Virus record (IMG/VR): IMGVR_UViG_3300022680_000020
Location: 1-43,895 of that record
DNA: 43,895 bases
DNA from: a virus
Reading direction: 5' to 3' (one strand)
Positions 1,063 to 42,996 of the stretch are shown in pieces (the stretch's first letter is position 1; each line of letters starts with the position of its first letter). Under the pieces are notes generated by a model, which was given only the letters and a program-made list of their open reading frames with translations, was not told the origin of the DNA and searched no databases. A program made the position numbers and the translations under genes.

Positions 1063-1091
1063 TTGACGCGGCGTGCTACACGTCGTAGACA
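1063..1091 (+). promoter_or_regulatory. Promoter-like element with CTAC-N5-GTAG operator ahead of the packaging genes
   Basis: TTGACG (1063-1068), a 17-bp spacer, then TAGACA (1086-1091) fit a sigma70-type promoter. The spacer and -10 are covered by the palindrome CTACACGTCGTAG (1076-1088). The geometry, with the TTG box starting 13 bp before CTAC, recurs at 38403/38416 and 40929/40942. The downstream bases GTAGACACAAGGTATGGA are nearly repeated at 10072-10089. Confidence 0.55.
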
Positions 1092-1097
1092 CAAGGT

Positions 1098-1154
1098 ATG
1101 GATAGCCTCACGATTGACGGCATAGGCGGCAAGGCGCAGAGGGGGCGCGCGTAG
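1098..1154 (+). CDS. Possible 18-residue leader peptide
   Basis: ATG 1098 opens an 18-codon frame (MDSLTIDGIGGKAQRGRA) that stops at TAG 1152-1154, immediately before the GTG of the terminase small subunit. It starts 10 bp after the palindrome and would be the first translated codon on that transcript. It could couple translation into the terminase gene. It may equally be chance, since no separate strong SD is visible. Confidence 0.25.
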   Translation: MDSLTIDGIGGKAQRGRA

Positions 1155-1670
1155 GTGGGCGGTCCAGGAAGCGGCCGCAAGCCTCGCGAGGGTAAAAAGA
1201 ACGGGCGTCCGACGGCGCTCACGCCAGCGGTTCAGACTGCCATCGTCGCCCATCTCCGAGCTGGCAACTACCTCGAGACGGCCGCGAACCTCGCCGGCCT
1301 CAACCGAACGACGGTGTTCTCGTGGCTTCGCCAGGGGGCGCAGACGAAGGACCCTGATAGCCCCCACAAGCGGTTCCTCGACGCTGTAAAAGAAGCGGAA
1401 TCGTACGCCGAGGCCGACGCGCTAGAACGACTGAGGGCTCACGGTGGGCAATACTGGCAAGCCGAGGCGTGGTATCTCGAAAGAAGACACCCGAGGCGAT
1501 GGGGGCGAAAGGACCGTGAGCCCGTCCCAGAAAGCAACGCGGACGAAGCGCGCGAAACGCTCGCCAACCGTGACGTGCGACGACTCCTCGACGAGGCGTC
1601 TCGAAAACTTGATGTGGCTCGCAAGCCCCGCCGCAATGGCGGCGACACTGAGCCGGGGGAAGTGGAATAG
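1155..1670 (+). CDS. Terminase small subunit
   Basis: 171 residues from GTG 1155, with an AGAGGGGG-type SD just upstream. The N-terminus (GGPGSGRKPREGKKNGRPTAL) is the basic Gly/Arg lead-in common in phage terminase small subunits. It is followed by a helix-turn-helix (about residues 40-60, NYLETAANLAGLNRTTVFSWLRQG) that recognises packaging-site DNA, then a helical region carrying ALERLRAHGGQYWQAEAWYLERRHPRRWGRK, typical of this family. It sits directly before the large subunit, whose start lies inside this gene in another frame. Role: DNA recognition and regulation of the packaging motor. Confidence 0.85.
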   Translation: MGGPGSGRKPREGKKNGRPTALTPAVQTAIVAHLRAGNYLETAANLAGLNRTTVFSWLRQGAQTKDPDSPHKRFLDAVKEAESYAEADALERLRAHGGQYWQAEAWYLERRHPRRWGRKDREPVPESNADEARETLANRDVRRLLDEASRKLDVARKPRRNGGDTEPGEVE

Positions 1671-2940
1671 AGCGCCTCACATAGACTTACTATCGGGGCT
1701 CCTCGGCGACGCCGCCTACGGCGAGACGCCGAGAGTCATCGTTTCCGAGCCACCGCGGCACGGCAAGTCGGAGCTTGTGAGCCACTGGTTTCCGGTCTGG
1801 TATCTCACGCTCAATCCGACGAAGCGTGTCATCCTGTGCAGCTATGAAGCGGACTTCGCGGCCTCGTGGGGTCGCCGCGTGCGCAACACTATCACCGAGC
1901 ACACCGAGCGGCTCGGCATTGCAGTCGCTCCCGACTCGGCGGCCGCGAACCGCTGGGACCTCACCGCGGGCGGCGGCATGGTCACCGCGGGCGTCGGTGG
2001 CCCTATCACCGGCAAGGGGGCCGACCTCCTGATAATTGACGACCCGGTGAAAAATTTCGCCGACGCCTACTCGGCGACGATCCGTGAGACGGCGTGGAAC
2101 TGGTATCGGTCGACGGCTCGCACTCGCCTCGAACCGGGCGGCGTCATCGTCGTTGTCATGACACGGTGGCATGAGGACGACCTGGTCGGCCGCCTACTGG
2201 CCGGCGATGGCGAGCCATGGCATGAGGTCAGACTCCCCGCTATCGCCGAGGGAGACGACGCCCTAGGCCGCTCAGAGGGCGAGCCGTTGTGGCCTGAGCG
2301 CTACGACGCCGAGGCGCTCGCGACCATTGAGAAGACCGTCGGGAGCCTCGTCTGGGCGGGCCTTTACCAGCAACGCCCAGCGCCTCTCGAGGGCGGCATC
2401 GTCAAGCGGGCGTGGCTCCAATTCTACGACGCCCCTCCGAAGCGGTTCGACGAGCTGATTCAGAGTTGGGACTTCCCCCAGAAAGGAAACCTTGACTCGG
2501 ACTATGTCGCCGGTCAGGTATGGGGTAGGCTCGGGGCCGACTGCTATTTGCTCGACCAGGTGCGGGGGCGTATGGACTTCCCAGCGATGCTCAAAGCGTT
2601 CGAGGCCCTCACGCTACGGTGGCCGCAAGCTCACCGCAAGCTGGTCGAGGACGCCGCCGCGGGGGCTCCCCTCGTCTCGACGCTGCGCTCGAAGATAGCC
2701 GGCATCGTGCCGGTCACGGCGAGGGCGAGTAAAGAGGCGCGCCTCGCCTCGGTGTCCTCGACCTTCGAGGCCGGCAACGTACACCTCCCGAAACACACGG
2801 CGTGGACCGAGGCTTACATCGACGAGCTCGTGACGTTCCCGGGGGCTAAAAACGACGACCAGGTCGACGCGACCTCGCAAGCCCTGGCTCGGCTCAGTAA
2901 CAGCGCGCTAGAACGACTCCGTCGCCTGGCGTCGAGGTGA
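1612..2940 (+). CDS. Terminase large subunit (ATPase-nuclease packaging motor)
   Basis: 442 residues from ATG 1612. GTG 1570 in the same frame, or ATG 1636, are alternative starts. Walker A is PPRHGKSE (residues 47-54) and Walker B is LLIIDD (139-144), followed by the coupling motif VVVMTRWHEDD. The C-terminal RNase H-like nuclease shows SWD (D287), a middle acidic VEDAAAG and DDQVDA (D419). This architecture cleaves concatemers and pumps DNA into the prohead through the portal. About 59 bp overlap the small-subunit gene. The intact motifs suggest an active enzyme. The Terminase_6-type family often packages by headful, but the mode cannot be read here. Confidence 0.95.
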   Translation: MWLASPAAMAATLSRGKWNRAPHIDLLSGLLGDAAYGETPRVIVSEPPRHGKSELVSHWFPVWYLTLNPTKRVILCSYEADFAASWGRRVRNTITEHTERLGIAVAPDSAAANRWDLTAGGGMVTAGVGGPITGKGADLLIIDDPVKNFADAYSATIRETAWNWYRSTARTRLEPGGVIVVVMTRWHEDDLVGRLLAGDGEPWHEVRLPAIAEGDDALGRSEGEPLWPERYDAEALATIEKTVGSLVWAGLYQQRPAPLEGGIVKRAWLQFYDAPPKRFDELIQSWDFPQKGNLDSDYVAGQVWGRLGADCYLLDQVRGRMDFPAMLKAFEALTLRWPQAHRKLVEDAAAGAPLVSTLRSKIAGIVPVTARASKEARLASVSSTFEAGNVHLPKHTAWTEAYIDELVTFPGAKNDDQVDATSQALARLSNSALERLRRLASR

Positions 2941-2944
2941 GACG

Positions 2945-4747
2945 ATGACGACGAAGCGGACTGCCGAGGCCAGGGCCGACGGCTGGGAAAACACGATCAC
3001 TGGCATCGGTCGGTGCATGGACAAGCGAAGCGGGACGAGGATCAAGGCCGTCGCCGTCGAGGGCTCGCGCGACCGATATGATGCTTTCTACCACGGCGAC
3101 GACAGCGCAGCGACTATCGCCGAGCTCCCCGCGAAGGAGATGACGCGCGAGTGGATTACATTGCAGGTCGACGACTCTGTGCAAGGCGAGAGCGGCGTGC
3201 GGGCCGAGGCCGGCCTCGACGAGAGGGCGCTCACGGCGAAGCAAATTATCCAGGCGCTCGACGACCTCTCGGCGAAGTCGGTCTTCTGTCGCGCCCTGCT
3301 ATGGGCTCGCGTGCATGGTGGCTCGCTCGTTTTCCTCGGCGTAGACGACGGAGTCGAGGACCTCGCCGAGCCGCTCAACGTCGACGCCGTGCGAAGCCTC
3401 GACTTCCTTACGGTGTTCGACCGTTGGGAGGCCCAGATAATCTCGACGGTGACGGACATCCGAAGCCCGGATTTCGGCAAGCCCGAGGTCTATCTCCTCA
3501 TTCCCACGACCGAGACTGGCGTCGGCGCAGCGTCGCCGGCGACGATGATTCATGCCTCTCGGTTCATTCGCTTCGAGGGCACGCTCACGAGCCGATACCG
3601 AATGGCCCTCAATAGCGGCTGGTCTGATAGTGTCTATACTAGGGTCGAGGAAGTCTTGAGAGACTATGGCTCCTCGTGGGCCTCGGTGGCGCATCTCATT
3701 CAGGACTTCTCTCAAGCGGTATTCAAAATGCAAGGCCTTCACGACGCCATTGTGCAGAACGAGCGCAACCTCGTTCTCGACCGAATGCTCGCCATGGATA
3801 TGTGTCGCTCGGTCGCGAGGGCCGTGCCTCTCGACGCCGAGAGCGAGAGCTTCGAGCGCGTGGCAACGCCGCTCACCGGCTTGTCCGATGTCCTCGACCG
3901 AATGATGCTCAGGCTCAGCTCGGCCGCGCGGATACCGGCCACCCTTCTTTTTGGGCAGTCGCCAGCGGGTCTCAACGCCACGGGCGAGAGCGACATACGG
4001 CTCTTCTATGACCACATAAAAGCCGAACAAGAGGAGACCCTACGGCCTCGGCTCGACCGTCTCCTCGACGTTCTTCTCGCCTCTCGAGAGGGACCGACGC
4101 GCGGCGTCGCCCCCGAGAATTGGAGCTACACGTTCGACCCGCTATGGCAGGAGACCGACAAGCAACGCGCCGAGACGCGCAAGCTCACCGCTGAGACCGA
4201 CGCAATCTATATCGCCGATGGGGTCCTCGACCCGGACGAGGTCGCTCAGTCGCGCTTCGGTGGCGACGCGTGGTCCTCTGAGACCATTCTCGACACCGAA
4301 GCGCGGACCGAGGGTATGGGGGCGCCTAGCGATGGGGCGTCGGAGGGTGACGTCGACACCTCCGACGTGTCCGACGACGACACCATGCCATCGACGGACG
4401 TCGCGCAAAGCGCCGCTGAGGGGGCCGCCGCATTGCCGCAAGCCACGCTCAACGGGGCGCAGATAGCAGCCCTCGCCGACACCGTCAAGGCAGTCATAGC
4501 AGGCGAATTACCGCGCGACACGGGCGTTCAGATTGTGAGCGCGTCGTTCCCTCTGGACCCGGCGAGGGTTGAGAGGCTATTCCGAGATGTCGAGAAGGGC
4601 TCGGCCGTTGTCCCGGTTACGGGGCTACCGCCGTTCGGCGACGCTGCGCCGACGCCCTTCTCGAAACCAGGCGAGGGCCAGGGGGCCGAGGGCGATGACG
4701 ATGACGAAGGGGCCGAGGGCGACGATGGAGGAGAGGGCGACGCGTAG
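2945..4747 (+). CDS. Portal protein (DUF1073 type)
   Basis: 600 residues starting 4 bp after the terminase stop. The central region (RIPATLLFGQSPAGLNATGESDIRLFYDHIKAEQE, spanning about 340-375) is the signature of DUF1073 portal proteins. The N-terminal wing has DRYDAFYHGDD and GLDERALTAKQIIQALDDLSAKSVFCRALLWARVHGGS. The C-terminus is a long acidic tail (Asp/Glu/Gly repeats over the last 25 residues), which may contact scaffold or neck proteins. The portal forms the dodecameric vertex ring through which terminase packages DNA. Confidence 0.9.
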   Translation: MTTKRTAEARADGWENTITGIGRCMDKRSGTRIKAVAVEGSRDRYDAFYHGDDSAATIAELPAKEMTREWITLQVDDSVQGESGVRAEAGLDERALTAKQIIQALDDLSAKSVFCRALLWARVHGGSLVFLGVDDGVEDLAEPLNVDAVRSLDFLTVFDRWEAQIISTVTDIRSPDFGKPEVYLLIPTTETGVGAASPATMIHASRFIRFEGTLTSRYRMALNSGWSDSVYTRVEEVLRDYGSSWASVAHLIQDFSQAVFKMQGLHDAIVQNERNLVLDRMLAMDMCRSVARAVPLDAESESFERVATPLTGLSDVLDRMMLRLSSAARIPATLLFGQSPAGLNATGESDIRLFYDHIKAEQEETLRPRLDRLLDVLLASREGPTRGVAPENWSYTFDPLWQETDKQRAETRKLTAETDAIYIADGVLDPDEVAQSRFGGDAWSSETILDTEARTEGMGAPSDGASEGDVDTSDVSDDDTMPSTDVAQSAAEGAAALPQATLNGAQIAALADTVKAVIAGELPRDTGVQIVSASFPLDPARVERLFRDVEKGSAVVPVTGLPPFGDAAPTPFSKPGEGQGAEGDDDDEGAEGDDGGEGDA

Positions 4748-4922
4748 CTTGCATGAGAACCTCGAGGCGGCCGAGGGCCACCTCGAAGCAATCGAGGCGA
4801 GCTCAGGCATCGTCGAGAGGCTGTGGCGCATCCTACTTGCGGCGCAGCGATTGACGCGAGCCGAGAGGCTCCTCGACCAGCTCGACGAACACTATCAGGG
4901 GAGGGGACACTATGGCGAGTAG
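4725..4922 (+). CDS. Small helical hypothetical protein
   Basis: 65 residues from ATG 4725, which lies inside the end of the portal gene with a GGAGGAGAGG-rich context. The sequence is almost entirely predicted helix (HENLEAAEGHLEAIEASSGIVERLWRILLAAQRLTRAERLLDQLDEH), with heptad-like leucines suggesting a coiled coil. No family is recognised. It overlaps the next gene by 11 bp. Position between portal and MuF genes suggests a small head-assembly accessory. Confidence 0.6.
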   Translation: MEERATRSLHENLEAAEGHLEAIEASSGIVERLWRILLAAQRLTRAERLLDQLDEHYQGRGHYGE

Positions 4923-5138
4923 TATGCCACCGCTCGGGCGGCCGAACATGGTAGCCATATCAGGCATGGCCGCGAAGGACCTCTTCGAGCTCAGAGAGTA
5001 TTACATCGTCAAGCTCGTTCAAGCTCACCGTGCGCACGACTCCGACACGGTTGTCGTGTGTCTCGACTGGATTTCTGCGCTCGTCTCAGAGATGCGCATG
5101 AGAGGCGGCCGACCGACGGCCGCGCCGAGTGTCATCGC

Positions 5139-5142
<4 letters not shown>
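4912..5142 (+). CDS. Small hypothetical protein between portal and MuF genes
   Basis: 76 residues from ATG 4912, with upstream SD AGGGGAGGGG (4900-4909). The middle (AAKDLFELREYYIVKLVQAHRAHDSDTVVVCLDWISALVSEMRMRGG) looks helical. The stop overlaps the GTG start of the MuF gene (GTGA at 5139-5142). No family recognised. Confidence 0.6.
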
Positions 5143-7192
<2,050 letters not shown>

Positions 7193-7196
<4 letters not shown>

Positions 7197-7465
7197 TAGG
7201 TCAGATCTACAAGCTCGACGAAGATGGCCGAGAGGTCGTGCTCGCAACCTATACCGTGGTCGACGGGCGCGCCGTGGGCGACTGGCGCCTCGACGTGAAC
7301 CCCGACTTTGTCGAGGACGTCGAGGCCGGCGTCTACGGCCTCGGGGGCGTTTTCGTTCGGCCGTCCGACGGCGAGGCGTTCGTCGAGGCGCTCGACGTCG
7401 CATTCTCGGCGAGCTCACGGATCAATGGTAGGACGAAGGACGAGCATTCTACCAGCGGGGGCTGA
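7193..7465 (+). CDS. Small protein downstream of MuF-kinase; possible partner or immunity protein
   Basis: 90 residues, ATGA overlap with the MuF fusion gene. The N-terminal half is beta-rich with tight turns (MIGQIYKLDEDGREVVLATYTVVDGRAVGDWRL) and the centre contains GVYGLGGVFVRPSDGEAFVEAL. The last 25 residues are encoded within the 94-bp direct repeat and reappear at the C-terminus of the 8739-9320 protein. In MuF polymorphic-toxin loci an immunity gene commonly follows the toxin, so this is the natural candidate, but no family is recognised. Confidence 0.65.
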
Positions 7466-7483
7466 CACAATGACCGACGGCAT
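7390..7483. repeat. 94-bp direct repeat, left copy
   Basis: Identical to 9245-9338 over 94 bp (offset 1855 bp). It covers the 3' end of the 7193 gene and the start of the 7470 gene (MTDG). After the repeat, similarity resumes briefly: GGGGCGCGG at 7484-7492 matches 9346-9354 after a 7-bp insertion in the right copy. The two copies bracket an accessory block. Confidence 0.95.
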
Positions 7484-8024
7484 GGGGCGCGGAATGAACG
7501 CCTTGCGGGTCCCTGGTCTTATGGCTCTGGTCGATGCGCTCATCGAAGGCGAATTCTGCGACGACCGCGACCGCGACGACCTCGTCGCGACCACGGCGCG
7601 GTGGGCTGAGACTTGCGGGCTCATCGACGCGAGCCAGCGCGAGCACGCAAAGTCGATGGCCGATGAGGGTCGCAAGCGCGCCATCATTGCAGATTATGTC
7701 GCCCTGGCAAAGCAGACGCGGAGTGTCAGCCGGCGCTCGGCGAAGATTGCGGCGCTGGGAATCAACCCATCGACCTTGAACCATTGGGCCAGGCGCTTGC
7801 ATGGGCCAGGCTATCTCGCTCAATTTGGACCGCCGTCGGCAACGGCGCTCGTGCTCGAATACGTGCGCCGCAGACCAGGCTCGACGCGGAGACAGATACT
7901 CGCGCACTCCGGCGTCTCGCCGAAGTCTATGCCTGGCGCGCTGGATTGGAGCTTGCGGCGCGGTCGCCTTCGACGCGAGCGAGACGACGGCGAGCGGCTC
8001 TGGCGATGGTACGCGAATGTGTGA
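7470..8024 (+). CDS. Hypothetical DNA-binding-like protein of the accessory block
   Basis: 184 residues from ATG 7470, with GGGGG-type SD 10 bp upstream. Two regions look like winged-helix or HTH segments: VSRRSAKIAALGINPSTLNHWARRLHG (about 90-115) and ATALVLEYVRRRPGSTRRQILAHSGVSPKSMPGALDWSLRRGRLRRE (about 125-172), ending in WRWYANV. The second reads like a winged helix (helix, turn, helix, then a hairpin ending in ERLWRWY). Codon choice (more GAA, TTG, CTG and CGC) differs from the surrounding CTC/GAG-rich genes, suggesting transfer. A truncated copy of its start (MTDGIEHGAR-stop) lies at 9325-9357. Confidence 0.65.
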   Translation: MTDGMGRGMNALRVPGLMALVDALIEGEFCDDRDRDDLVATTARWAETCGLIDASQREHAKSMADEGRKRAIIADYVALAKQTRSVSRRSAKIAALGINPSTLNHWARRLHGPGYLAQFGPPSATALVLEYVRRRPGSTRRQILAHSGVSPKSMPGALDWSLRRGRLRRERDDGERLWRWYANV

Positions 8025-9320: not shown

Positions 9321-9338
9321 CACAATGACCGACGGCAT
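9245..9338. repeat. 94-bp direct repeat, right copy, with truncated gene start
   Basis: Identical to 7390-7483. In this copy the ATG at 9325 (matching the start of the 7470 gene) leads only to MTDGIEHGAR and then TAG 9355-9357, a stub that ends directly before the GTG of the 9358 frame. It appears to preserve the uninterrupted phage junction, with the 1855-bp block inserted to its left. Confidence 0.95.
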
Positions 9339-9357
9339 TGAGCACGGGGCGCGGTAG

Positions 9358-9681: not shown

Positions 9682-9690
9682 TTGGTGTAC

Positions 9691-9718: not shown

Positions 9719-9745
9719 CTCTCTCTCCCTCGAAGCGAGAACCCT

Positions 9746-10012: not shown

Positions 10013-10013
10013 C

Positions 10014-10089
10014 TTGACGCGACCCCTTAGTCGTGTGACAAATCAAGCACCTAGCCAATGCGCTACTAGCCGTAGTCACAGGGTATGGA
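10014..10089 (+). promoter_or_regulatory. Promoter-like spacer with CTAC-N5-GTAG operator before the head operon
   Basis: TTGACG (10014-10019) is followed 18 bp later by ACAAAT (10038-10043), a weak promoter match. Downstream is the palindrome CTACTAGCCGTAG (10063-10075). The following bases GTAGTCACAGGGTATGGA (10072-10089) match those after the terminase operator (1085-1102) with two differences, so the two sites share more than the palindrome. Confidence 0.5.
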
Positions 10090-13367: not shown

Positions 13368-13746
13368 GGTGACTGTCACGGCCGACACCGTGCGCGAGAC
13401 GTTCCCGGAGTTCGACGGTTGTTCAGACACGGCCGTCGAACGCTGGCTCGCACACGCCGCTCGGCGCGTTAACGAAACGCAATGGGCCGGTATGTACGAC
13501 GACGGCGTTCTCTGGCTCACGGCGCACCTACTGAAAATCAACGCCAACCTCAGCGTCGGTTTGCAGGCAGGGACGGGGGCGGTTAAGTCTCAACGCGTGG
13601 GCGACCTCTCGGTGACGTTCGAGGTCCCTCAGCGCATGTCGCAATCGTTCCTCGCCTCGACCACGTACGGTCAGTATTTTCTCGACATGCAGGCGAACGT
13701 GTTCCCGACTCGCGTGCTAGGGTCGTGCTCGACCGGGTGCGCCTAA
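13357..13746 (+). CDS. Head-tail connector (DUF4054-like)
   Basis: 129 residues from GTG 13357. GTG 13369, with AAGGG 11 bp upstream, is an alternative start giving MTVTADTVRETFPEF. The helical pattern TVRETFPEFDGCSDTAVERWLAHAARRVNETQWAGMYDDGVLWLTAHLL is typical of DUF4054/gp6-like adaptors, which bind below the portal and build the neck. The C-terminal FLASTTYGQYFLDMQ also fits. It is the first of three neck genes coupled by overlaps. Confidence 0.75.
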   Translation: MAIEVTVTADTVRETFPEFDGCSDTAVERWLAHAARRVNETQWAGMYDDGVLWLTAHLLKINANLSVGLQAGTGAVKSQRVGDLSVTFEVPQRMSQSFLASTTYGQYFLDMQANVFPTRVLGSCSTGCA

Positions 13747-17308: not shown

Positions 17309-17327
17309 GATACCTACAGACTGTATC
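17309..17327 (+). promoter_or_regulatory. Operator-like palindrome before the tail chaperone
   Basis: GATACCTACAGACTGTATC: GATAC and GTATC form arms around CTACAGACTGTAT (17314-17326), a one-mismatch version of the CTAC-N5-GTAG element. Its core CTACAGACTGTA is identical to that at 38933-38944. The following GTATCTCTACAG repeats part of the arm. It sits in a 69-bp spacer between the tube and chaperone genes. Confidence 0.5.
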
Positions 17328-35328: not shown

Positions 35329-35337
35329 GGGTAGACA

Positions 35338-36078
35338 ATGGGACGCAAGGTCAGAGTCGAGGACGGTTTCGATTGGGTCGCCCTCAACAACTTGCCGAAA
35401 GGCTGCTACAAGCAAATTCTCGGCGAGGGCGACGACGTCGCCAACGGGGCCAGGGGCGACGGCGCCTCGTTCGAGATCTCAGAGAGCACGACGGGCGACC
35501 ACGACGTCGAGTGGCAGCACACGCAACTCGCCTACGTCCTCGGTGGGATCTGCCACGCGTTCGACCACGTCGAGGGCGACGTGATCTCGTTCGGCGTCTA
35601 CGCGCCGGCCACCGCTGGCGTGTCGAACACTGGCGCTGGCGACTACGACAAATCCATCGTTGGCGCTGGCAAGTATCGGTTTCGACCCGTGGGCGAGGGC
35701 GAGGGAGACTGGGACCTCAACATCTCCGAGACGCTCAACGGCAACGTCGGATTCACGAAGGCCGTTCCCTACCCGAACCCGTACGGGACGGGATACTTCA
35801 ACTTCAACCCGGCGACGGGGGCGCTCACCGCTGCGCCAGCGGGCAACGGAGGGTATGACGTCTACGACCACGCGAAGGAGCTGAGCACGTTCGTTTTCAG
35901 GATCCCCGTTGTCGCCGTTCTCGACCTTCGCGACGACGGCGTTGTGAGTACGCCAGTGCTCCCTCACTACCGCTGGCGCGTGCGCTACAACCGCGCCTCG
36001 GCCTCGGCCTTTCGTTGTTGCTGGCGCATCACACTTGGATTCTACGACACGCGAACCGGCCTATGGGGCGACGCGTAG
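35338..36078 (+). CDS. Fibre-region hypothetical structural protein
   Basis: 246 residues from ATG 35338. An aromatic- and Gly-rich beta protein (KGCYKQILGEGDDVANGARG, FNFNPATGALTAAPAGNGGYDVYDHAKELSTFVFRIPVVAVLDLRDD, YRWRVRYNRASASAFRCCWRITLGFYDTRTGLWGDA). It lies between the two paralogous modules and is probably a virion surface component. No named family recognised. Confidence 0.65.
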   Translation: MGRKVRVEDGFDWVALNNLPKGCYKQILGEGDDVANGARGDGASFEISESTTGDHDVEWQHTQLAYVLGGICHAFDHVEGDVISFGVYAPATAGVSNTGAGDYDKSIVGAGKYRFRPVGEGEGDWDLNISETLNGNVGFTKAVPYPNPYGTGYFNFNPATGALTAAPAGNGGYDVYDHAKELSTFVFRIPVVAVLDLRDDGVVSTPVLPHYRWRVRYNRASASAFRCCWRITLGFYDTRTGLWGDA

Positions 36079-36087
36079 GGGGCTCAT

Positions 36088-36594
36088 ATGGGGACAGGGA
36101 TCAAGGGCCGACGGCCTATCGCGACACGTCTCGACAACGCGGGCGACACCGAGCTCGCCGTCGATGGTTCGACTACGCCGGTCGCGTTCTCGTTCGACGC
36201 GCTCGCCGACGATGACGCCGTGATCACAGAGCTACAGCTTATCTTCGAGGACAACTCAGATATCGACTTCGGAAACCGATTCATGGGCCTCGGAAGCGGC
36301 TCTCAGCTCCCGAACGGCATTGAGGTCGAGGTGAAAACCGAAGAGGCGCTGATTCACATCCAAACGATCAAGGCGACTCGGGGGCTCCTTCGCTTCTCGT
36401 CGGCGGGCAATTTCGAGCTCCATTCTGGAGCTGGTTTCCGTTACATCGTCAAGGCGTCGCGGTCGTTCCCGGACGGTCTCATGATCCGTCGGGCCGGTAG
36501 CTACCCGACGAACGACTACTTCAAGGTGACGATCAACGACGACCTCTCGGGGCTCACGTACGGGGTTGCCACCGTGTTCGGCTTTCGGCTATGA
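36088..36594 (+). CDS. Fibre-region protein, paralog of the 34705 protein
   Basis: 168 residues from ATG 36088 with GGGGG upstream. It consists almost only of the module shared with the C-terminal 150 residues of the 34705 protein (ELAVDGSTTPVAFSFDALADDDAVITELQLIFEDN...). The first shared stretch is still identical in DNA over 36 bp, showing a recent copy or gene conversion. It lacks the partner's N-terminal lead. Probably a small spike or adaptor of the virion. ATGA overlap with the next gene. Confidence 0.65.
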   Translation: MGTGIKGRRPIATRLDNAGDTELAVDGSTTPVAFSFDALADDDAVITELQLIFEDNSDIDFGNRFMGLGSGSQLPNGIEVEVKTEEALIHIQTIKATRGLLRFSSAGNFELHSGAGFRYIVKASRSFPDGLMIRRAGSYPTNDYFKVTINDDLSGLTYGVATVFGFRL

Positions 36595-36953
36595 CGACGC
36601 GCACGATCACACTCTGGGCGATGCTCGGGGCGACGGTCGCTATCCTGGGCTACGACGTCGTGGTCGCGACGAACGACGTCACGGGCGACACGATCTCAGA
36701 AATCAGCCGCGACCTCGCCTCGGCCTGGTTTTCGCTGCCGTTCGCATGGGGCGTTGTCGTCGGCCACCTATTCTGGCCGGCGAAGGAGGTCCGACAGAAA
36801 TGGCCACGCATAGCGGCCCTCTGGGCCCTCGGGGCGGCGGTCCTCGTCCTCGACGTGACGACGCCGATTCAAGCCCCGGCGATTGCGGCCGTCGTCCTCG
36901 GCCTCGTCATGGGTCGGTTGCTATGGCCTCAGCTCGCGCCTCGAGGGGCGTAG
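36591..36953 (+). CDS. Multi-pass membrane protein A (holin candidate)
   Basis: 120 residues from ATG 36591 (ATGA overlap). About four hydrophobic segments are visible (LWAMLGATVAILGYDVVVA, FSLPFAWGVVVGHLFWP, IAALWALGAAVLVLDV, AIAAVVLGLVMGRLLWP). Two of them end in the motif G-H/R-LFWP/LLWP. It is followed by a clear tandem paralog and then the endolysin, a classic holin location. The repeated GH-x-x-WP ending is not one I associate with a named holin family. Confidence 0.65.
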   Translation: MTTRTITLWAMLGATVAILGYDVVVATNDVTGDTISEISRDLASAWFSLPFAWGVVVGHLFWPAKEVRQKWPRIAALWALGAAVLVLDVTTPIQAPAIAAVVLGLVMGRLLWPQLAPRGA

Positions 36954-37348
36954 TGCGAGAGCCGGTCGGCGGCAACGTCCTCGCCACCGGCGCGAAGCTC
37001 TCGGCGCTCTCGGTTACGCTGGCCGCCCTGTGCTACGATGCTTGGGCGGCCTACGACACAATGCACGGCGACACCGCACTTGAGATCGCATCGGCCATCG
37101 CATGGCGTTGCCAGACCGTCGCGTGGTTTTGGGGCGTGCTCGCCGGCCACCTATTCTGGCCGACGTTCGAGCGGCGCGCCGGTCGGCGAGCTCGTCGCCT
37201 CTCGGCCCTCTGCGCCTTCGGTGGCGCGCTGGCGCTGGTCGACTACTTCGCGGTCGGGACGATGATACCAGCGTGGCCGGTCGTGCTCGGCGTCGTCATG
37301 GGCCACGCTCTCTGGCCGCATGAACCGAGGGGGGATCTCAATGCGTAG
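36953..37348 (+). CDS. Multi-pass membrane protein B, tandem paralog (holin/antiholin candidate)
   Basis: 131 residues from GTG 36953, which overlaps the previous stop by one base. In-frame ATG 36923 would extend it by 10 residues. It aligns with the preceding protein: YDxWAAYDTMHGDTALEIASAIA, TVAWFWGVLAGHLFWP, LCAFGGALALVDYF, IPAWPVVLGVVMGHALWP. The middle loop is more Arg-rich (FERRAGRRARRL). Tandem paralogs before an endolysin suggest a holin and a modulating partner, though a nutrient- or host-interaction role cannot be excluded. Confidence 0.65.
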   Translation: MREPVGGNVLATGAKLSALSVTLAALCYDAWAAYDTMHGDTALEIASAIAWRCQTVAWFWGVLAGHLFWPTFERRAGRRARRLSALCAFGGALALVDYFAVGTMIPAWPVVLGVVMGHALWPHEPRGDLNA

Positions 37349-37967
37349 CTTGACAGTCTACGACGCGACGGCCGACTGCTTTGATGGCAAGTATCAACGC
37401 AAGCAACGCGACCCGTCCGCACTCATTATCCATCGTTGCGGGCGCACCGTGGGCGAGACGGCCGCCGAGGTCGCGCGTTTCTTCGCCCGAGAGGGGCGCG
37501 AGTACACGGCCGGCAATATGCCCTACACGTACGTCGTGACGCACTCCCTGGTCGAGCAAGGGCTCCCTCTCGACGAGCGAGGCGCGCACGCTCAGAGATG
37601 GGGCAACGCCTTCGGAATCGGAATCGCTATCATTGGGGACTGGAATCGAGAGCGCCCTAACTCGGTGCAATGGTCTCTCGCCGTGCGACTCTGCGCCGAG
37701 CTACTCCCTTGGCTCGCGCCACGGGCGGCCGAGGACGACGTGTTACTGCCAATGAGGCTTCGCAACGTCGTGCCCGTCTACGGCCATGGAGAGCTACCTC
37801 ATTGCATTCGGGGGGCAGGGGAGAAGCGCCAACCGGACGGCGCCTACGCTTGCCCTGGTCGGCAATGGGACATGGACGACTTTAGAGAAGAGGTGGCCGC
37901 CGAGGATCGGCGGCTCGCCGCAATGGAGCTTCACGCGCGCGGCCATAGGCTCACCGGCGAGACGTAA
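37341..37967 (+). CDS. Endolysin, N-acetylmuramoyl-L-alanine amidase
   Basis: 208 residues from ATG 37341, chosen because GAGGGGGG lies 6 bp upstream. ATG 37320 is in frame but has no such SD. The Amidase_2/PGRP zinc site is visible: H31 (LIIHRCG), H149 (VYGHGEL) and C171 (CPGRQWDM). YTYVVTH and GIGIAIIGDWN give the typical central strands. It cleaves the amide bond between muramic acid and the stem peptide. No signal peptide or cell-wall-binding domain is evident, so release probably depends on a holin. Confidence 0.85.
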   Translation: MRSLTVYDATADCFDGKYQRKQRDPSALIIHRCGRTVGETAAEVARFFAREGREYTAGNMPYTYVVTHSLVEQGLPLDERGAHAQRWGNAFGIGIAIIGDWNRERPNSVQWSLAVRLCAELLPWLAPRAAEDDVLLPMRLRNVVPVYGHGELPHCIRGAGEKRQPDGAYACPGRQWDMDDFREEVAAEDRRLAAMELHARGHRLTGET

Positions 37968-37972
37968 AAAAA

Positions 37973-38001
37973 GGCCTGGCCACTGTCGCGGTGGCCAGGC
38001 C
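37973..38001 (-). terminator. Rho-independent terminator of the - strand regulator gene
   Basis: GGCCTGGCCAC (37973-37983) pairs perfectly with GTGGCCAGGCC (37991-38001) over a 7-nt loop. The seven A residues at 37966-37972 become a T run after the stem on the - strand, so it ends transcription of the 38025-38348 gene. The same stem may also slow rightward late transcription after the endolysin. Confidence 0.85.
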
Positions 38002-38024
38002 AACGAAACGGCTCGGGGGCCACC

Positions 38025-38348
38025 CTAAGCCGATCTCGCTTGCTGCCGTGGTATGCGTTGTGAGCGCGGCACTATCCCTCGCTCGCGCGAGGCGCCGCTT
38101 CGGATCTGGCACCATGAATACACGTCGACCGCACCGTTCGTCGCCTTGTCGATGCGCACGGCGAGGTCGAGAGACGCGCGTCGGCGGCCGGCGAGGAGGT
38201 GCGAGATCTGCAATGGCGTGCAGTCCGCAAGCCGCGCGAGCTCGGAGATGTTCAGTTGCGTCTGACCGAGGAACCGGCGCAACCGCTCATGACCGATCGT
38301 GTTCGTCGGTCGTTTGCACCGCATCGGAGTGGTTATTAGATCTGCCAT
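38025..38348 (-). CDS. Cro/CI-like (XRE) transcriptional regulator
   Basis: 107 residues on the - strand, start ATG 38348-38346. The central HTH reads NISELARLADCTPLQISHLLAGRRRASLDLAVRIDKATNGAVD, a typical XRE domain with recognition helix near TPLQISHLLAGRRR. The C-terminus is short and basic, with no peptidase or oligomerisation domain, so it is more Cro-like than CI-like. It is the only convincing - strand gene and faces the early operon across an 89-bp spacer holding a CTAC-N5-GTAG palindrome. That makes it the prime candidate for reading this element genome-wide. Confidence 0.8.
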   Translation of the reverse strand: MADLITTPMRCKRPTNTIGHERLRRFLGQTQLNISELARLADCTPLQISHLLAGRRRASLDLAVRIDKATNGAVDVYSWCQIRSGASRERGIVPRSQRIPRQQARSA

Positions 38349-38402
38349 ACCATCGGTCTATCATGGACGATCGGAGAGATGCAATAGGCAAACGGCTACC
38401 GC

Positions 38403-38431
38403 TTGTCTTTTCTGGCTACCCGTGGTAGCTG
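38403..38431 (+). promoter_or_regulatory. Early promoter with CTAC-N5-GTAG operator
   Basis: TTGTCT (38403-38408), 17 bp, TAGCTG (38426-38431), with palindrome CTACCCGTGGTAG at 38416-38428 (extended arms GCTAC/GTAGC). A half-site CTACCGCTTGT lies at 38393. It is located between the - strand regulator and the first early gene, so it could control both directions. Confidence 0.6.
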
Positions 38432-38437
38432 GATTGG

Positions 38438-38623
38438 ATGTCTGCACTCGGAGAATCGATCGCGCTCGACCGGGCGGCGAGGCGCCTTCGTTGGCTACTT
38501 GCCCACGATAACACACTCTCGCCTGGCGAGCGAGCGCGAATGACGCGCGAGGCCGCAGAGCTAGAGCGCGAAGCGAAATGGGCGTACGCCGCCGCAAGGG
38601 ACGAGTGCGAGGAAGGAGACTGA
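38438..38623 (+). CDS. Small helical early protein
   Basis: 61 residues from ATG 38438. Entirely helical and charged (LDRAARRLRWLLAHDNTLSPGERARMTREAAELEREAKWAYAAARDECEEGD). First gene of the early operon, only 10 bp downstream of the operator, so its message would have a very short leader and no strong SD is seen. Function unknown. Confidence 0.6.
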   Translation: MSALGESIALDRAARRLRWLLAHDNTLSPGERARMTREAAELEREAKWAYAAARDECEEGD

Positions 38624-38626
38624 GCA

Positions 38627-38926
38627 ATGATCGAACCTAAGCTCCCGACGCGCTTCGTCGAGGGAATGCGTCTCTGGCTTCTCTACGGCGTGAGGCCAGG
38701 GTCGTTTTTCTTCGCGGTCCTCTGCAACGACCTCAGAAACGCCATCGGCTACGCCGACCCTTACTCGCTGGTCGAGCTACCGGGTATCGTGAGCTGGCTT
38801 CACAACGAAGCGCCAGCGGCGGCATGGGGCTCGCCCGAGCAATGCAAGGCGTGGCATGAGGAGCGGCGAAAGGTTCACGAGGACGTACAGAAGGAGCAAG
38901 CGAAACTACTTGCAAGCGGGGGTTGA
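38627..38926 (+). CDS. Early hypothetical protein
   Basis: 99 residues from ATG 38627 with GGAAGGAGACTGAGCA SD. It starts LPTRFVEGMRLWLLYGVRPGSFFFAVLCNDLRNAIGYADPYS and ends in a basic helix (QCKAWHEERRKVHEDVQKEQAKLL). The pattern 'F-x-x-GMRxWLLYGVxPGSFF-x-AVLxNDLxxAxGxAD' is widespread among small phage early proteins of unknown function. It is encoded between the early promoter and the recombination nuclease. Confidence 0.7.
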   Translation: MIEPKLPTRFVEGMRLWLLYGVRPGSFFFAVLCNDLRNAIGYADPYSLVELPGIVSWLHNEAPAAAWGSPEQCKAWHEERRKVHEDVQKEQAKLLASGG

Positions 38927-38930
38927 ATCG

Positions 38931-38947
38931 GGCTACAGACTGTAGCC
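38931..38947 (+). promoter_or_regulatory. 17-bp perfect palindrome abutting the nuclease start codon
   Basis: GGCTACAGACTGTAGCC is a perfect 8+1+8 palindrome containing CTAC-N5-GTAG at 38933-38945. The next base begins ATG 38948, so the site occupies the position of the SD. TTGAAT lies 10 bp upstream of the CTAC. Bound protein could block transcription, and RNA hairpin formation could hide the start. Confidence 0.65.
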
Positions 38948-40015
38948 ATGCCAAGAATCTCAGCACTCCCGACGTTTATCTCCTGCCCCTCCTCTATGCT
39001 CGAAACCGAGCACCCATATGACCCTGGCTCTGTGGCGGGCCTCACGGGCGACGCCACCCACGACGCGCTTGCGACGCGCGTTTTGGGCTCGGTGCCGGAC
39101 GTACCAGCGATCGCCAAGAAACACGGTGTCGATCTCGACGAGCTCTCGTTTCTCGTCTCCTCTGGCGAGGCGGCGTGGCGTGAGGTTGAGAAACACTTCC
39201 CGAACCCCCGCACCGAGGAGCCGCTCGACGGAGGGGAGATCTGGGGGACGGCCGACGTTTTTGCATACGACGGCGTCCGCATGGGTATCCTCGATTGGAA
39301 AAGCAATCGAGTCAAGCGAGCCTATCTGCCGCAAGTCCTTGGGTATGTCGCCGCGGCCACCGCTCAATACGGTTGGCCAGAATCGGGCAAGGTCGTCGCG
39401 GTACTCGCCTGGCTTCGGTTCGGCGAGTTCGACGTCTGGACGTTCGACCGCTCCGACGTCGAGGGTCTGTATCACTCGGTCGAGCGTGCTCAGCGCGAGA
39501 TCGGAGAGGTCTATGCGCCGGGTGACCCATGCCATTATTGTCGCCGCCAGCTCGTGTGCAGTGCCCGTCACGAGTTTCTTTCCTCGGCGCGCGAGGCGGT
39601 TATCTCGGCGGCCGGCGTCGCAGTCACAAGGGAGGTTCTCGCTTCACTGTATCCGCGGGCGAAACTACTGCGCCATGCCCTCGACCAGTTTGACCAGGCC
39701 CTCCGCATCGCGCTGAGAGACGGCCCTCTCTCCGATGGCAACGACCACGAGCTCGCCCTCGTCGAGCAATCTCGAGACGTCATCGACGCGCAAGCCGCGT
39801 GGCCGATCCTGATAGAGAACGGACTCACCGAAAATCAACTAGCACAGTGCGTTACCATCGGCAAAACTAGGTTGCTATCTGCGTTTACCGATGGTAAGAA
39901 GCGAGGCACGAAGGGCGCTGCAAAAACAGAGCTAATGAGGGCTCTCAGCGAAGGCGGCGCAGTCAAAAAACGCGTAACCGAGGTTATGCAGATCAAAAAA
40001 CCCGGGGGGGGATAA
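38948..40015 (+). CDS. Cas4/RecB-like PD-(D/E)XK exonuclease
   Basis: 355 residues from ATG 38948. Residues 1-210 carry the Cas4/RecB-type features: C13 in ISCPSS, H39, D103 (GTADVF), D116-x-K118 (GILDWKS), Q129 and Y133 (QVLGY), then C195-xx-C198-x5-C204. The four cysteines could hold an iron-sulfur cluster. The C-terminal 140 residues are helical. It resembles DUF2800-type phage proteins. It would degrade DNA ends to feed the annealing protein encoded next (TAATG overlap). There is no SD; the palindrome sits in its place. Confidence 0.82.
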   Translation: MPRISALPTFISCPSSMLETEHPYDPGSVAGLTGDATHDALATRVLGSVPDVPAIAKKHGVDLDELSFLVSSGEAAWREVEKHFPNPRTEEPLDGGEIWGTADVFAYDGVRMGILDWKSNRVKRAYLPQVLGYVAAATAQYGWPESGKVVAVLAWLRFGEFDVWTFDRSDVEGLYHSVERAQREIGEVYAPGDPCHYCRRQLVCSARHEFLSSAREAVISAAGVAVTREVLASLYPRAKLLRHALDQFDQALRIALRDGPLSDGNDHELALVEQSRDVIDAQAAWPILIENGLTENQLAQCVTIGKTRLLSAFTDGKKRGTKGAAKTELMRALSEGGAVKKRVTEVMQIKKPGGG

Positions 40016-40908
40016 TGGACGACGAAGCCATGATGCTACATGCAGTCCCGGATGAGTTTCAAGAGAGTAGCGCGTTGCAGCGCGTCGAACCGACCGCCCT
40101 TGAGTCTGTGACTCGAGGCGAGGTCGACATGCAAGTGACGACCGCGAAGAGGTTCCCACGCAGCGTGCAGGCGTTCAAACGAGACGCCCTCTCGCTCGCG
40201 ACCGTCAACAAGGAAGTCGCGACCGCGTGCGTCTACGCGCTACCACGCGGGGGAAAAACGATCGAGGGACCGTCGGTGCGCCTCGCTGAGATCGTCGCCG
40301 GCGCGTGGGGTAACCTCCGAGTCGAGGCGAGAATCCTGTCGGCCGACGAAAAAGAGATCACAGCGCAAGCGACTTGCTGGGACATGCAAAGGAACGTCGC
40401 CGTCAAGATCGAGAAAAAGCGCCCTATCACAGGGAAAAACGGGCGAAGATTTAACGACGACATGATCACAATGGCGGGCAATGCGGCCGCATCAATCGCG
40501 CTGAGAAACGCGATCTTTCGCATCGTTCCCATGGCCTACATCAACGAGATCGTGACGCATTGCAAGCGCATCCGTGCGGGCGGCGGCAACGGCCTCGAGG
40601 AGACGCGGGCGAAGTGGATGCTCTACTTCGAGCGGCGAGGCTACTCGGCTGCTCAGGTGTGCGCGCTGCTGGACAAGACGGGCGTCGAGGACATCGACCT
40701 CGAGGACGTGGGGACACTCCAGGGCATTCACACCGCGGTCGACCAGGGTGAAACGACTCTCGAAGAAATCTTCTCGGAGATCGCGCCCGAGCTGAGCGCC
40801 GGAAAGCACGCGTTCGGCTTCGGAAAACGACGCGCCGGCGTTCGCAGCGCCGGCGCGCCCAGCAACGAAAAAGAGCCCGAGAGCGATCCCGATCCGTCCG
40901 ACCCCTGA
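40015..40908 (+). CDS. Putative single-strand annealing recombination protein
   Basis: 297 residues from ATG 40015, coupled to the nuclease by TAATG and preceded by a G8 tract acting as SD. The core GKTIEGPSVRLAEIVAGAWGNLRVEARILSADEKEITAQATCWDMQRNVAVKIEKKRPIT, followed by NDDMITMAGNAAASIALRNAIFRIVP, is a conserved phage family usually left unnamed. Its location after an exonuclease and its beta-rich core with a later helical tail fit a Rad52/Redbeta-like annealing protein. Function is inferred from context rather than from a diagnostic motif. The end is acidic and disordered. Confidence 0.7.
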   Translation: MDDEAMMLHAVPDEFQESSALQRVEPTALESVTRGEVDMQVTTAKRFPRSVQAFKRDALSLATVNKEVATACVYALPRGGKTIEGPSVRLAEIVAGAWGNLRVEARILSADEKEITAQATCWDMQRNVAVKIEKKRPITGKNGRRFNDDMITMAGNAAASIALRNAIFRIVPMAYINEIVTHCKRIRAGGGNGLEETRAKWMLYFERRGYSAAQVCALLDKTGVEDIDLEDVGTLQGIHTAVDQGETTLEEIFSEIAPELSAGKHAFGFGKRRAGVRSAGAPSNEKEPESDPDPSDP

Positions 40909-40928
40909 CCCTTCTCGTCGATCTCCGT

Positions 40929-40957
40929 TTGCATCTTTCTTCTACGCCTTGTAGCGT
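40929..40957 (+). promoter_or_regulatory. Promoter with CTAC-N5-GTAG operator before the replication initiator
   Basis: TTGCAT (40929-40934), 17 bp, TAGCGT (40952-40957), with palindrome CTACGCCTTGTAG at 40942-40954. The spacing is identical to the elements at 1063 and 38403. Confidence 0.6.
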
Positions 40958-40958
40958 A

Positions 40959-40994
40959 GCGCCAGCGGCCGTCAACAACAACGACCGCTGGCGC
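40959..40994. terminator. 10-bp perfect hairpin upstream of the initiator gene
   Basis: GCGCCAGCGG (40959-40968) pairs with CCGCTGGCGC (40985-40994) around an A/C-rich loop. There is no T run. It begins 5 bp after the operator, so it lies in the 5' leader of any transcript from that promoter and may be an attenuator or mRNA-stabilising stem. Confidence 0.5.
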
Positions 40995-41025
40995 AATCCA
41001 GCGCCCACTAGACCCGAGGTGACGA

Positions 41026-42030
41026 ATGCCGTGGGTTAGGCTGGACGACTCAATCTTAGATCACCCCAAACTGATCAACGCTGGCCCCATGGCCGAGCGG
41101 CTCTATATCCGGTCGATAGTCTGGTCGTCCAGGCATTTAACCGACGGCGCCGTGCCGAAAAAGGCCGTCGACCATATCTGTAGGTGGGACGGCGTCACGG
41201 CTCCGAGCAACGTCGAGCTCGCCGGCCACCTCGTCGAGGCCGGTCTCTGGCACCCGACCGAGGAGGGCTGGGCCATCCATGACTTCGCCGACTATCAGCC
41301 GAGCCGAGAGCAAGTCCTCGCGAAGCGGACGAAGGCGCGAGAGGCCGTCGAGACGAAGCGCGAGAAGACCCGAGAGAGGACTCGGAGGTGGCGAGAGCGG
41401 AAACGCTCCGAGCGTGACGCCGTCGACGTGACGCTCTCCGAGAGCGTCACCGAGCGTCACGGTGACGTCACCGAGCGTCACACGGTGTCACCGCTCGCAG
41501 CGGAGAGCGTCACCGACGCCCCGGTGACGCTTCTCGAGGCGACAGAAAAACCCTCAGAAATCAACGGTGTGACGCATGTGACGCTGCCGATTGCGGAGAG
41601 CGTCACACGTGACGCGAAACGCACGGGTGACGCGTCACACCCCCTTCCTCCCATCCCATCCCATAGATCAACTACAGAGAGAGAGAGAGATAGCACGGTG
41701 ACGCAATCCGAATGCGTCACAGGTCCGCTGTCGGCGGCCGACCTCGAGAAGGAGGGGTTCCGGCGTTTCGGGAGCCTCGGAGGTATCAACATCGTCCGGG
41801 CTCGCGAGCTCGCCCCCGTCGCGCGGTGGGAGTGGGATGCCGCACTCAAGACCGAGGGCAAGTCGTGGGCGTACGCCCTAAAGGTCCTCAGAAGCATGAG
41901 AGAGGAGCAAGCTAACCCCAAGCCTAGGGCCGCCTCGCCCTCGGCGCCTCGGCGCCCTCGGAGAGCTCAGGGGGGCAATCTGAGGCAAGCGACGGACAAG
42001 CTCATGGAGTGGGCGGTCGCTCATGGCTGA
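41026..42030 (+). CDS. Replication initiator-like winged-helix protein
   Basis: 334 residues from ATG 41026 with GAGGTGAC 5 bp upstream. The N-terminus (MPWVRLDDSILDHPKLINAGPMAERLYIRSIVWSSRHLTDGAVPKKAVDHI...VELAGHLVEAGLWHPTEEGWAIHDFADYQPSREQV) is a winged-helix domain shared by phage replisome organisers. The middle (about 125-230) is a low-complexity linker encoded by iteron-like repeats. The C-terminal domain (LEKEGFRRFGSLGGINIVRARELAPVARWEWDAAL) may contact the helicase. The following gene is a helicase-loader-like protein, supporting an initiation role. Confidence 0.75.
   Translation: MPWVRLDDSILDHPKLINAGPMAERLYIRSIVWSSRHLTDGAVPKKAVDHICRWDGVTAPSNVELAGHLVEAGLWHPTEEGWAIHDFADYQPSREQVLAKRTKAREAVETKREKTRERTRRWRERKRSERDAVDVTLSESVTERHGDVTERHTVSPLAAESVTDAPVTLLEATEKPSEINGVTHVTLPIAESVTRDAKRTGDASHPLPPIPSHRSTTERERDSTVTQSECVTGPLSAADLEKEGFRRFGSLGGINIVRARELAPVARWEWDAALKTEGKSWAYALKVLRSMREEQANPKPRAASPSAPRRPRRAQGGNLRQATDKLMEWAVAHG
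41414..41720. repeat. Iteron-like GTGACG/CGTCAC cluster, candidate replication origin
   Basis: About 17 copies of the hexamer GTGACG in either orientation lie within roughly 307 bp, several as back-to-back inverted pairs (for example GTGACGCGTCAC near 41632-41643). The cluster also holds A-rich stretches (GACAGAAAAACCC) and a GA dinucleotide run at about 41675-41689. Origins embedded in initiator genes are known from lambda O and many replisome organisers. Confidence 0.65.
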
Positions 42031-42562
42031 GACCATCACACGCCCCGAGTTCGTCGAGCTCATGACGCGACTCAGGACTTGCTACCCTCAGCCAATGAGC
42101 GACCCCGAGGCATGGATGGCCCTCGTCGCGACTTACTACTCCGTCGTCTCGAGGTACGACGCGCCCTCGGTTCGCCGTGCGATGGCGTCCGCATGGGCGC
42201 GCCACCGAGAATGGTTCCCGACCCTCGGCCAGCTCGTGGCCATCGTCGAGGGAGACTCTCCTCCCTCGCTTCGCGCCGCCGAGGCGTGGCCCGAGGTCCT
42301 TCGCCTCGCAGCGGGGGCAGGGGGCGCGCACTCCGACCCGACGGCGGCCGAGGCAATGGCGCTTATGGGCGGCGCCGACGGCCTCGGGCAATGGGACGCG
42401 AGGGAGCTAGAGCGCTACGGGCGAGCTCGCTTCGTCGCGACGTACGTCGAGCTGGTCGAGCGGCGGCGCCTCGGGCCTGGTAGGCCGGCGCTTCCCGACG
42501 CCGACCCGAGACTCGCGAGGCTCGCTGGGGAGGTGGCAGATCGGCGCGCGATGCAACGATAG
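42023..42562 (+). CDS. Helicase-loader-like protein
   Basis: 179 residues from ATG 42023, overlapping the initiator end by 8 bp. The N-terminal ITRPEFVELMTRLRTCYPQPMSDPEAWMALVATYYSVVSRYDAPSVRRAMASAWARHREWFPTLGQLVAIV resembles the helical N-domain of G39P-type loader/inhibitor proteins, including the common W-x-x-L...FPT-x-x-x-L pattern. The C-terminal half is a disordered, Ala/Arg-rich tail. Adjacent placement after an initiator gene supports delivery of the replicative helicase to the origin. Confidence 0.65.
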   Translation: MAETITRPEFVELMTRLRTCYPQPMSDPEAWMALVATYYSVVSRYDAPSVRRAMASAWARHREWFPTLGQLVAIVEGDSPPSLRAAEAWPEVLRLAAGAGGAHSDPTAAEAMALMGGADGLGQWDARELERYGRARFVATYVELVERRRLGPGRPALPDADPRLARLAGEVADRRAMQR

Positions 42563-42626
42563 CGAGTCGGCAATCCAAACGACGCTGGTCGCAATCTGCG
42601 CCGCGCGTGGGGTCGGATGCTTCGCC

Positions 42627-42917
42627 GTGCCGAACGGTACGTGGCTCGGAGGTGGTGTGCGCGGCACGGCTCGGTTCGCCTACCTCGCGAGACTGAAGCG
42701 CGAGGGCGTGCTCGCTGGCGCTCCTGACCTGGTTTTCTTCGACCTCGACCTCCGAGGGCGTCCCGTGGCCCTCGAACTAAAGGCGCCCCGGGGGAGGCTC
42801 TCGACGGCGCAGAGGGCGCTTCACGGGCGAATGCGTGCGGCGGGATGGACGGTGCTCGTAGCCTACGGCCTCGACGATGCGCTGCGCCAGCTCTCGGAGT
42901 GCGGACTGTGGCGGTAG
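42627..42917 (+). CDS. VRR-NUC domain nuclease
   Basis: 96 residues from GTG 42627, the first ordinary start in frame. The VRR-NUC core is clear: RLKREGVLAGAPDLVFF (D34), ALELKAP (E50-x-K52), and Q62 in LSTAQRALHGRM. Upstream codons continue in frame with SESAIQTTLVAICAARGVGCFAV, which matches the expected first helix of this family. The real start is therefore probably near 42540-42590 and non-standard, or the sequence has an error. Phage VRR-NUC proteins act as structure-specific nucleases, for example on branched DNA. Confidence 0.75.
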   Translation: MPNGTWLGGGVRGTARFAYLARLKREGVLAGAPDLVFFDLDLRGRPVALELKAPRGRLSTAQRALHGRMRAAGWTVLVAYGLDDALRQLSECGLWR

Positions 42918-42921
42918 GTGG

Positions 42922-42945
42922 CCCTCGGAGAGGGAGGTCGTTTTT
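42922..42945 (+). terminator. Weak hairpin with T run after the VRR-NUC gene
   Basis: CCCTC (42922-42926) pairs with GAGGG (42930-42934) over GGA. Six bases later comes TTTTT (42941-42945). Weak but in the right position to end the early operon. Confidence 0.35.
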
Positions 42946-42956
42946 GCATCCGTCAC

Positions 42957-42996
42957 TTGACGTATGCGGAGCCATGCACTACGATAGGTATATAAC
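42957..42996 (+). promoter_or_regulatory. Promoter-like region before 43022 with near-match operator
   Basis: TTGACG (42957-42962), 17 bp, TACGAT (42980-42985). A second -10-like TATAAC lies at 42991-42996. CTACGATAGGTAT (42979-42991) is a one-mismatch CTAC-N5-GTAG element covering the -10. Confidence 0.5.

What the first reader, a model, noticed from the sequence alone, without database searches (positions are those of the whole stretch)
1076..42991. Phage-wide palindromic operator CTAC-N5-GTAG at transcription-unit starts
Exact copies: 1076-1088, 10063-10075, 38416-38428, 38933-38945 and 40942-40954. One-mismatch copies: 17314-17326 and 42979-42991. All lie in short spacers directly before transcription units. 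At 1063, 38403 and 40929 a TTG-type -35 hexamer starts exactly 13 bp before CTAC, so the palindrome covers the spacer and -10. A rough base-composition estimate gives under one chance match in a window this size. This suggests one regulator coordinates packaging, head, tail-chaperone, recombination and replication operons, unusual in linking early and late genes.
Basis: partly seen in the sequence, partly recalled or inferred. Interest (0 to 1): 0.8.

Follow-up and report, generated by a model that had tools for sequence, protein, structure and literature searches.

The report
Phage-wide repressor operator, eight sites
This tailed phage carries one short palindromic DNA sign, repeated at the starts of its early and late gene blocks, which is very probably the landing site of its own small repressor protein; an uncultivated relative carries a slightly changed repressor and a matching, slightly changed sign, so this is a new case of a known kind of phage-wide genetic switch.

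Summary
CTAC-N5-GTAG occurs exactly five times (0.15 expected), all between genes, although spacers are only 2.75% of the window. It is the top inter-gene palindrome of all 4-base half-sites with spacers 0-20. Every inter-gene gap of 60 bp or more holds a site. The real core is TAC-N5-GTA. A weight matrix adds an eighth site (38347), at the start of the repressor gene 38025-38348(-).

The one syntenic relative with an early region (G049, 44 kb, uncultivated; repressor 48% identical) carries ATAC-N5-GTAT five times (0.08 expected). Its TAC-N5-GTA sites lie in matching spacers: before the terminase operon, at the repressor start, the early promoter, the exonuclease, and after the VRR nuclease. 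Core and positions are conserved while the outer base changed along with the repressor. In 6 of 13 sites a TTG-type -35 lies 13-14 bp upstream (0.31 expected), so the palindrome overlaps the -10.

Best explanation: a dimeric Cro/C1-type repressor silences itself and at least six operons, early and late. The second HTH protein (487-750) has no counterpart in G049. No integrase was found, so lysogeny versus lytic timing stays open. Binding is untested. A new member of a known kind.

The parts
1076..1088 (.). operator CTACACGTCGTAG before the terminase operon
   Evidence: exact; gap 1047-1154; G049 has TAC-N5-GTA sites at 1144 and 1253 upstream of its terminase operon
1063..1068 (+). -35-like TTGACG, 17 bp before TAGACA
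   Evidence: sequence; TTG enrichment 13-14 bp before the core
10063..10075 (.). operator CTACTAGCCGTAG before the DUF2213 head gene (10090)
   Evidence: exact; relative L087 has ATACTATCCGTAT at 644 just before its DUF2213 gene
17314..17326 (.). operator CTACAGACTGTAT before the tail assembly chaperone gene (17354)
   Evidence: one mismatch; highest-scoring site of the matrix scan; not conserved in L086 or G049
38347..38359 (.). weaker operator ATACCATCGGTCT at the start of the repressor gene (autoregulation)
   Evidence: among the top eight matrix hits, intergenic, not used to build the matrix; G049 has ATACAATAGGTAT at the same place
38025..38348 (-). repressor, HTH_31/HTH_3 (Cro/C1 fold), 107 aa; an internal ATG at 38324 is an alternative start
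   Evidence: Pfam, AF2 model with high confidence over most of residues 20-80, 45-48% identical homologue in G049
38416..38428 (.). operator CTACCCGTGGTAG at the early promoter, divergent from the repressor
   Evidence: exact; G049 counterpart ATACGTTTGGTAT over TTGACA-N16-TATGAT
38403..38408 (+). -35-like TTGTCT, 17 bp before TAGCTG
   Evidence: sequence
38933..38945 (.). operator CTACAGACTGTAG 2 bp before the exonuclease start (38948)
   Evidence: exact; G049 counterpart ATACCAATGGTAT at 36006 before its exonuclease; start codon supported by alignment
40942..40954 (.). operator CTACGCCTTGTAG before the replication initiation gene (41026)
   Evidence: exact; no counterpart in G049
40929..40934 (+). 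-35-like TTGCAT, 17 bp before TAGCGT
   Evidence: sequence
42979..42991 (.). operator CTACGATAGGTAT before the gene at 43022; a TTGACG (42957) lies 17 bp before TACGAT in the palindrome
   Evidence: one mismatch; G049 counterpart ATACGGACCGTAT at 41666 after the homologous nuclease gene

Best explanation
The palindromes are operators of one phage-encoded repressor, the 107-aa Cro/C1-type HTH protein at 38025-38348(-). A dimer would read TAC-N5-GTA, each subunit one half-site, with a lineage-specific outer base (C here, A in G049). At the sites with a recognisable promoter the operator covers the spacer and the -10 hexamer, so a bound dimer blocks RNA polymerase. The repressor shuts its own gene (38347), the divergent early operon (38416), and the exonuclease, replication, post-nuclease, terminase, head and tail-chaperone units. 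Shown here: the motif, its enrichment, its placement, its conservation in matching spacers, and the presence of the homologous repressor in the one relative that has the variant motif. Inferred: binding, dimerisation, repression rather than activation, and the use (lysogeny-type immunity, or timing during lytic growth).
For: Exact motif 5 seen, 0.15 expected; top inter-gene palindrome of all tested; only at spacer 5. All six gaps of 60 bp or more carry a site. The top eight matrix hits in the window are all intergenic (seven of them built the matrix, so only the eighth is independent). G049 is syntenic over nearly the whole genome, carries a 48% identical repressor in the same divergent position and ATAC-N5-GTAT five times against 0.08 expected, placed at the repressor start, early promoter, exonuclease and post-nuclease spacers, with further TAC-N5-GTA sites before the terminase operon. 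The HTH segment TPxQxxHLLxGRRRASL is nearly identical in both repressors, differing at L46M, I48V, S49A and A53K. TTG lies 13-14 bp upstream of the core in 6 of 13 sites; mean 0.31 at random positions, 0 of 20,000 trials as high. The second HTH protein has no counterpart in G049. Five-helix HTH fold, nearest solved folds DdrO N-terminal domain, C.BclI and HigA, at weak E-values.
Against: Only one relative with both repressor and early region was found, so co-change of repressor and operator rests on two genomes. Sites 17314 and 40942 are not conserved in G049, and the four closest late-region relatives lack the exact motif. -10 hexamers of the form TAGnnn are poor sigma-70 matches, and 10063, 17314 and 38933 have no good -35 at 13-14 bp. 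Binding was not measured.
Confidence: 0.8

Rival explanations
1. The same operators are bound by the other HTH protein, 487-750(+), acting as a C-protein-like timing regulator.
For: It is an HTH_31/HTH_3 protein of 87 aa with weak similarity to C.AhdI; a C protein, C.Csp231I, reads CTAAG-N5-CTTAG, also a palindrome with a 5-bp spacer (PMC4321490).
Against: No homologue in G049 at any useful score, although G049 has the operator; it is not next to a site that would be its own.
Confidence: 0.07
2. The palindrome is an activator site or a recognition element of a phage sigma factor or polymerase that switches these units on.
For: It lies at transcription-unit starts of both early and late genes; the -10 hexamers are weak.
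Against: It overlaps the -10 itself, where activators seldom bind; G049 has TTGACA-N16-TATGAT at such a site; two-fold symmetry and a site at the HTH gene's own start fit a dimeric autorepressor.
Confidence: 0.08
3. The palindromes act in RNA as hairpins at 5' ends or as translation operators.
For: Two sites fold stably as RNA (-8.5 kcal/mol, 38416 and 38933); 38933 lies 2 bp from a start codon.
Against: Other sites in the window fold weakly or not at all (0 to -3.9), while the TAC/GTA letters, not stem strength, are what is conserved; most sites lie over the presumed -10 and would not be transcribed.
Confidence: 0.03
4. Chance or a by-product of base composition.
For: One-mismatch matches are no more frequent than chance.
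Against: Exact and core counts, inter-gene placement, and the matching sites in G049.
Confidence: 0.01

Closest known systems
Repressor/stoperator systems of cluster A mycobacteriophages (L5, Bxb1, Trixie)
   Same: One repressor with many short sites in inter-gene spacers across the genome, an autoregulatory site at the repressor gene, and operator motifs that change along with the repressor between relatives (PMC9283540, PMC6550527).
   Different: Those sites are asymmetric 13-mers, more than twenty, bound by a monomer with two DNA-binding domains; here the sites are symmetric, about eight, and the protein has one HTH domain.
Lambda-type CI/Cro switches
   Same: HTH of the same general fold, symmetric operators, divergent repressor and early promoters, autoregulation (lambda features from general knowledge).
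   Different: Sites are spread over early and late units rather than clustered at two control regions; the 107-aa protein has no C-terminal cleavage/oligomerisation domain.
C proteins of restriction-modification systems (C.Csp231I, C.BclI)
   Same: Similar fold and, for C.Csp231I, a palindrome with a 5-bp spacer, CTAAG-N5-CTTAG.
   Different: No restriction-modification genes beside the repressor, and a different half-site.
HigA-type antitoxins
   Same: Weak profile match, below cutoff (TIGR02607), similar fold, probable autoregulation.
   Different: No toxin gene is recognised beside it, and the sites are phage-wide.

Membership tests
Cro/C1-type HTH phage repressor | HTH_3/HTH_31 five-helix fold | tested here: met
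   Pfam hits a little below the cutoffs; AF2 model plus Foldseek
Cro/C1-type HTH phage repressor | divergent from the early operon with operators between | tested here: met
   sites 38347 and 38416 between 38348(-) and 38438(+); same plan in G049
Cro/C1-type HTH phage repressor | binds the operator as a dimer and represses | not testable with these tools
   needs EMSA and reporters
L5-type stoperator system | asymmetric, oriented 13-mer sites | tested here: not met
   sites are two-fold symmetric
L5-type stoperator system | sites in many inter-gene spacers genome-wide | tested here: met
L5-type stoperator system | sites stop elongation | not testable with these tools
   38933 has no clear promoter of its own and would be a candidate
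HigBA toxin-antitoxin | paired toxin gene | tested here: not met
   no toxin recognised beside it: amidase and late genes on one side, early genes on the other
Integrating temperate phage | integrase gene | tested here: inconclusive
   none found among the window or G049 proteins scanned, but not every gene was scanned

The most novel reading that the evidence does not exclude
A myophage lineage without an integrase uses a cI-like master repressor not for integration-type lysogeny but as a timing switch (or plasmid-prophage immunity) over early and late operons alike, with repressor and operator specificity drifting together between relatives by a single base per half-site.
Probability: 0.25. 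Interest if true: 0.55.

Novelty: new member of a known kind. Interest (0 to 1): 0.42.

Why it matters
It gives a predicted regulator, its operator and its regulon for an uncultivated phage lineage, plus a natural pair (window and G049) in which a few recognition-helix changes go with one base change per half-site. That pair makes immunity specificity directly testable, and it shows that an operator map can be read from two metagenomic genomes.

Tried and rejected
Relatives by terminase were too distant and showed no motif. The closer relatives L086-L089 found through the major head protein cover only the late half and lack the exact motif; L087 has ATAC-N5-GTAT before DUF2213. The distant repressor-like hit L104 shows no enrichment of the core (9 against 14 in the reversed control). 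Phages sharing only early proteins such as phrog_3657 (G075, G076, G077, G084) have no comparable palindrome set, which also serves as a negative control. Two scans of bacterial genomes gave no relative, so no host or prophage is known. Protein search for the repressor in the phage collection gave nothing. The matching overlap of the operator with the repressor ATG in both phages was first taken as strong evidence, then discounted, because CATAC itself contains a reversed ATG and the window protein may start at 38324. The RNA hairpin reading was rejected on uneven stability.

Full report
Observation. The window is a 43.9-kb myophage genome: terminase 1155-2940, portal 2945, MuF-type protein 5139, DUF2213 gene 10090, major head protein 11893, sheath 15538, tail chaperone 17354, further tail genes, amidase 37341-37967, then a single minus-strand HTH gene 38025-38348 and an early block (exonuclease 38948, phrog_3657 protein 40015, replication initiation 41026, VRR nuclease 42591). 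CTAC-N5-GTAG occurs at the five stated places and with one mismatch at the two others.

Chance. One-mismatch matches are not above chance, but exact ones are: 5 against 0.15, and TAC-N5-GTA 9 against 1.99. Seven of those nine are intergenic though spacers make up 2.75% of the window. In an unbiased scan of every 4-base half-site with spacers 0-20, CTAC-N5-GTAG has the most intergenic copies, and all five of its copies are intergenic. All six gaps of at least 60 bp have a site. In 48 terminase relatives the pattern is rare (6 copies in total, 20 of the reversed control), and four phages that share only early proteins have no similar palindrome set.

Comparison. L086-L089 (head protein 77-80% identical) hold only late genes; L087 has ATACTATCCGTAT just before its DUF2213 gene, the place of window site 10063. 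G049 (IMGVR_UViG_3300028840_001346, 44,085 bp; coordinates here on its reverse complement) is syntenic over almost the whole genome and has the HTH gene at the same divergent position. Its palindrome is ATAC-N5-GTAT: five copies, 0.08 expected, at the repressor start (32435), the early promoter (32555), a following small gene (33287), before the exonuclease (36006) and after the VRR nuclease (41666, which overlaps the end of the nuclease reading frame in my gene model); two more TAC-N5-GTA sites lie before the terminase operon (1143, 1252). Window counterparts are 38347, 38416, none, 38933, 42979 and 1076. The window site at 38347 was found by a matrix built from the other sites and is among its top eight hits. 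Sites 17314 and 40942 have no counterpart in G049.

Promoter geometry. A TTG lies 13 or 14 bp before the core in 6 of 13 plus-oriented sites; random positions give 0.31 on average and never 6 in 20,000 trials. The downstream half-site then supplies the first letters of the -10 (TATGAT, TATGCT, TATGGC in G049; TAGACA, TAGCTG, TAGCGT here). At 42979 a TTGACG lies 17 bp before TACGAT, so there the upstream half-site supplies the -10. Sites 10063, 17314 and 38933 lack a clear -35; 38933 sits 2 bp before the exonuclease start, which is confirmed by alignment with G049, and may act on read-through transcription.

Regulator. The 38025-38348 protein is the HTH protein shared with G049; 487-750 has no counterpart there. 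The model shows a five-helix HTH with high confidence over most of residues 20-80; nearest solved folds are DdrO, C.BclI and HigA. The two repressors share TPxQxxHLLxGRRRASL and differ at positions 46, 48, 49 and 53, which is consistent with a shared TAC core and a changed outer base; this last link is inference.

Known systems. It works like the repressor regulons of cluster A mycobacteriophages, where sites are scattered through the genome, one lies at the repressor gene, and motif and repressor change together (PMC6550527), but it is not a member: those sites are asymmetric and bound by a two-domain monomer (PMC9283540). The symmetric operator with a 5-bp spacer resembles that of C.Csp231I (PMC4321490). 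No integrase was found, so whether this is a lysogeny repressor or a timing switch cannot be told.

Noticed in passing
5139-7196: MuF/SPP1 gp7-type head protein whose C-terminal half matches PI3_PI4_kinase and the SCO1664 family; the relatives L086 and G049 match only its N-terminal half. Possibly a MuF fusion carrying an extra enzyme.
   Followed up: partly
40960-40994: Strong inverted repeat (CGCCAGCGG...CCGCTGGCG) directly downstream of operator 40942 and before the replication gene; role unknown.
   Followed up: no
37966-38002: A-run followed by GGCCTGGCCAC...GTGGCCAGGCC between the late operon and the repressor, terminator-like for converging transcription.
   Followed up: no
41427-41650: Many copies of GTGACGC/GAGCGTCAC in the replication initiation gene, origin-iteron-like.
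   Followed up: no
13665-13677: TAC-N5-GTA inside a structural gene, also present in L086 and L089; explained by a conserved protein segment, not by an operator.
   Followed up: yes
L102:11489-12718: G049 has an N6/N4 DNA methylase gene directly before its terminase genes, not seen in the window.
   Followed up: no
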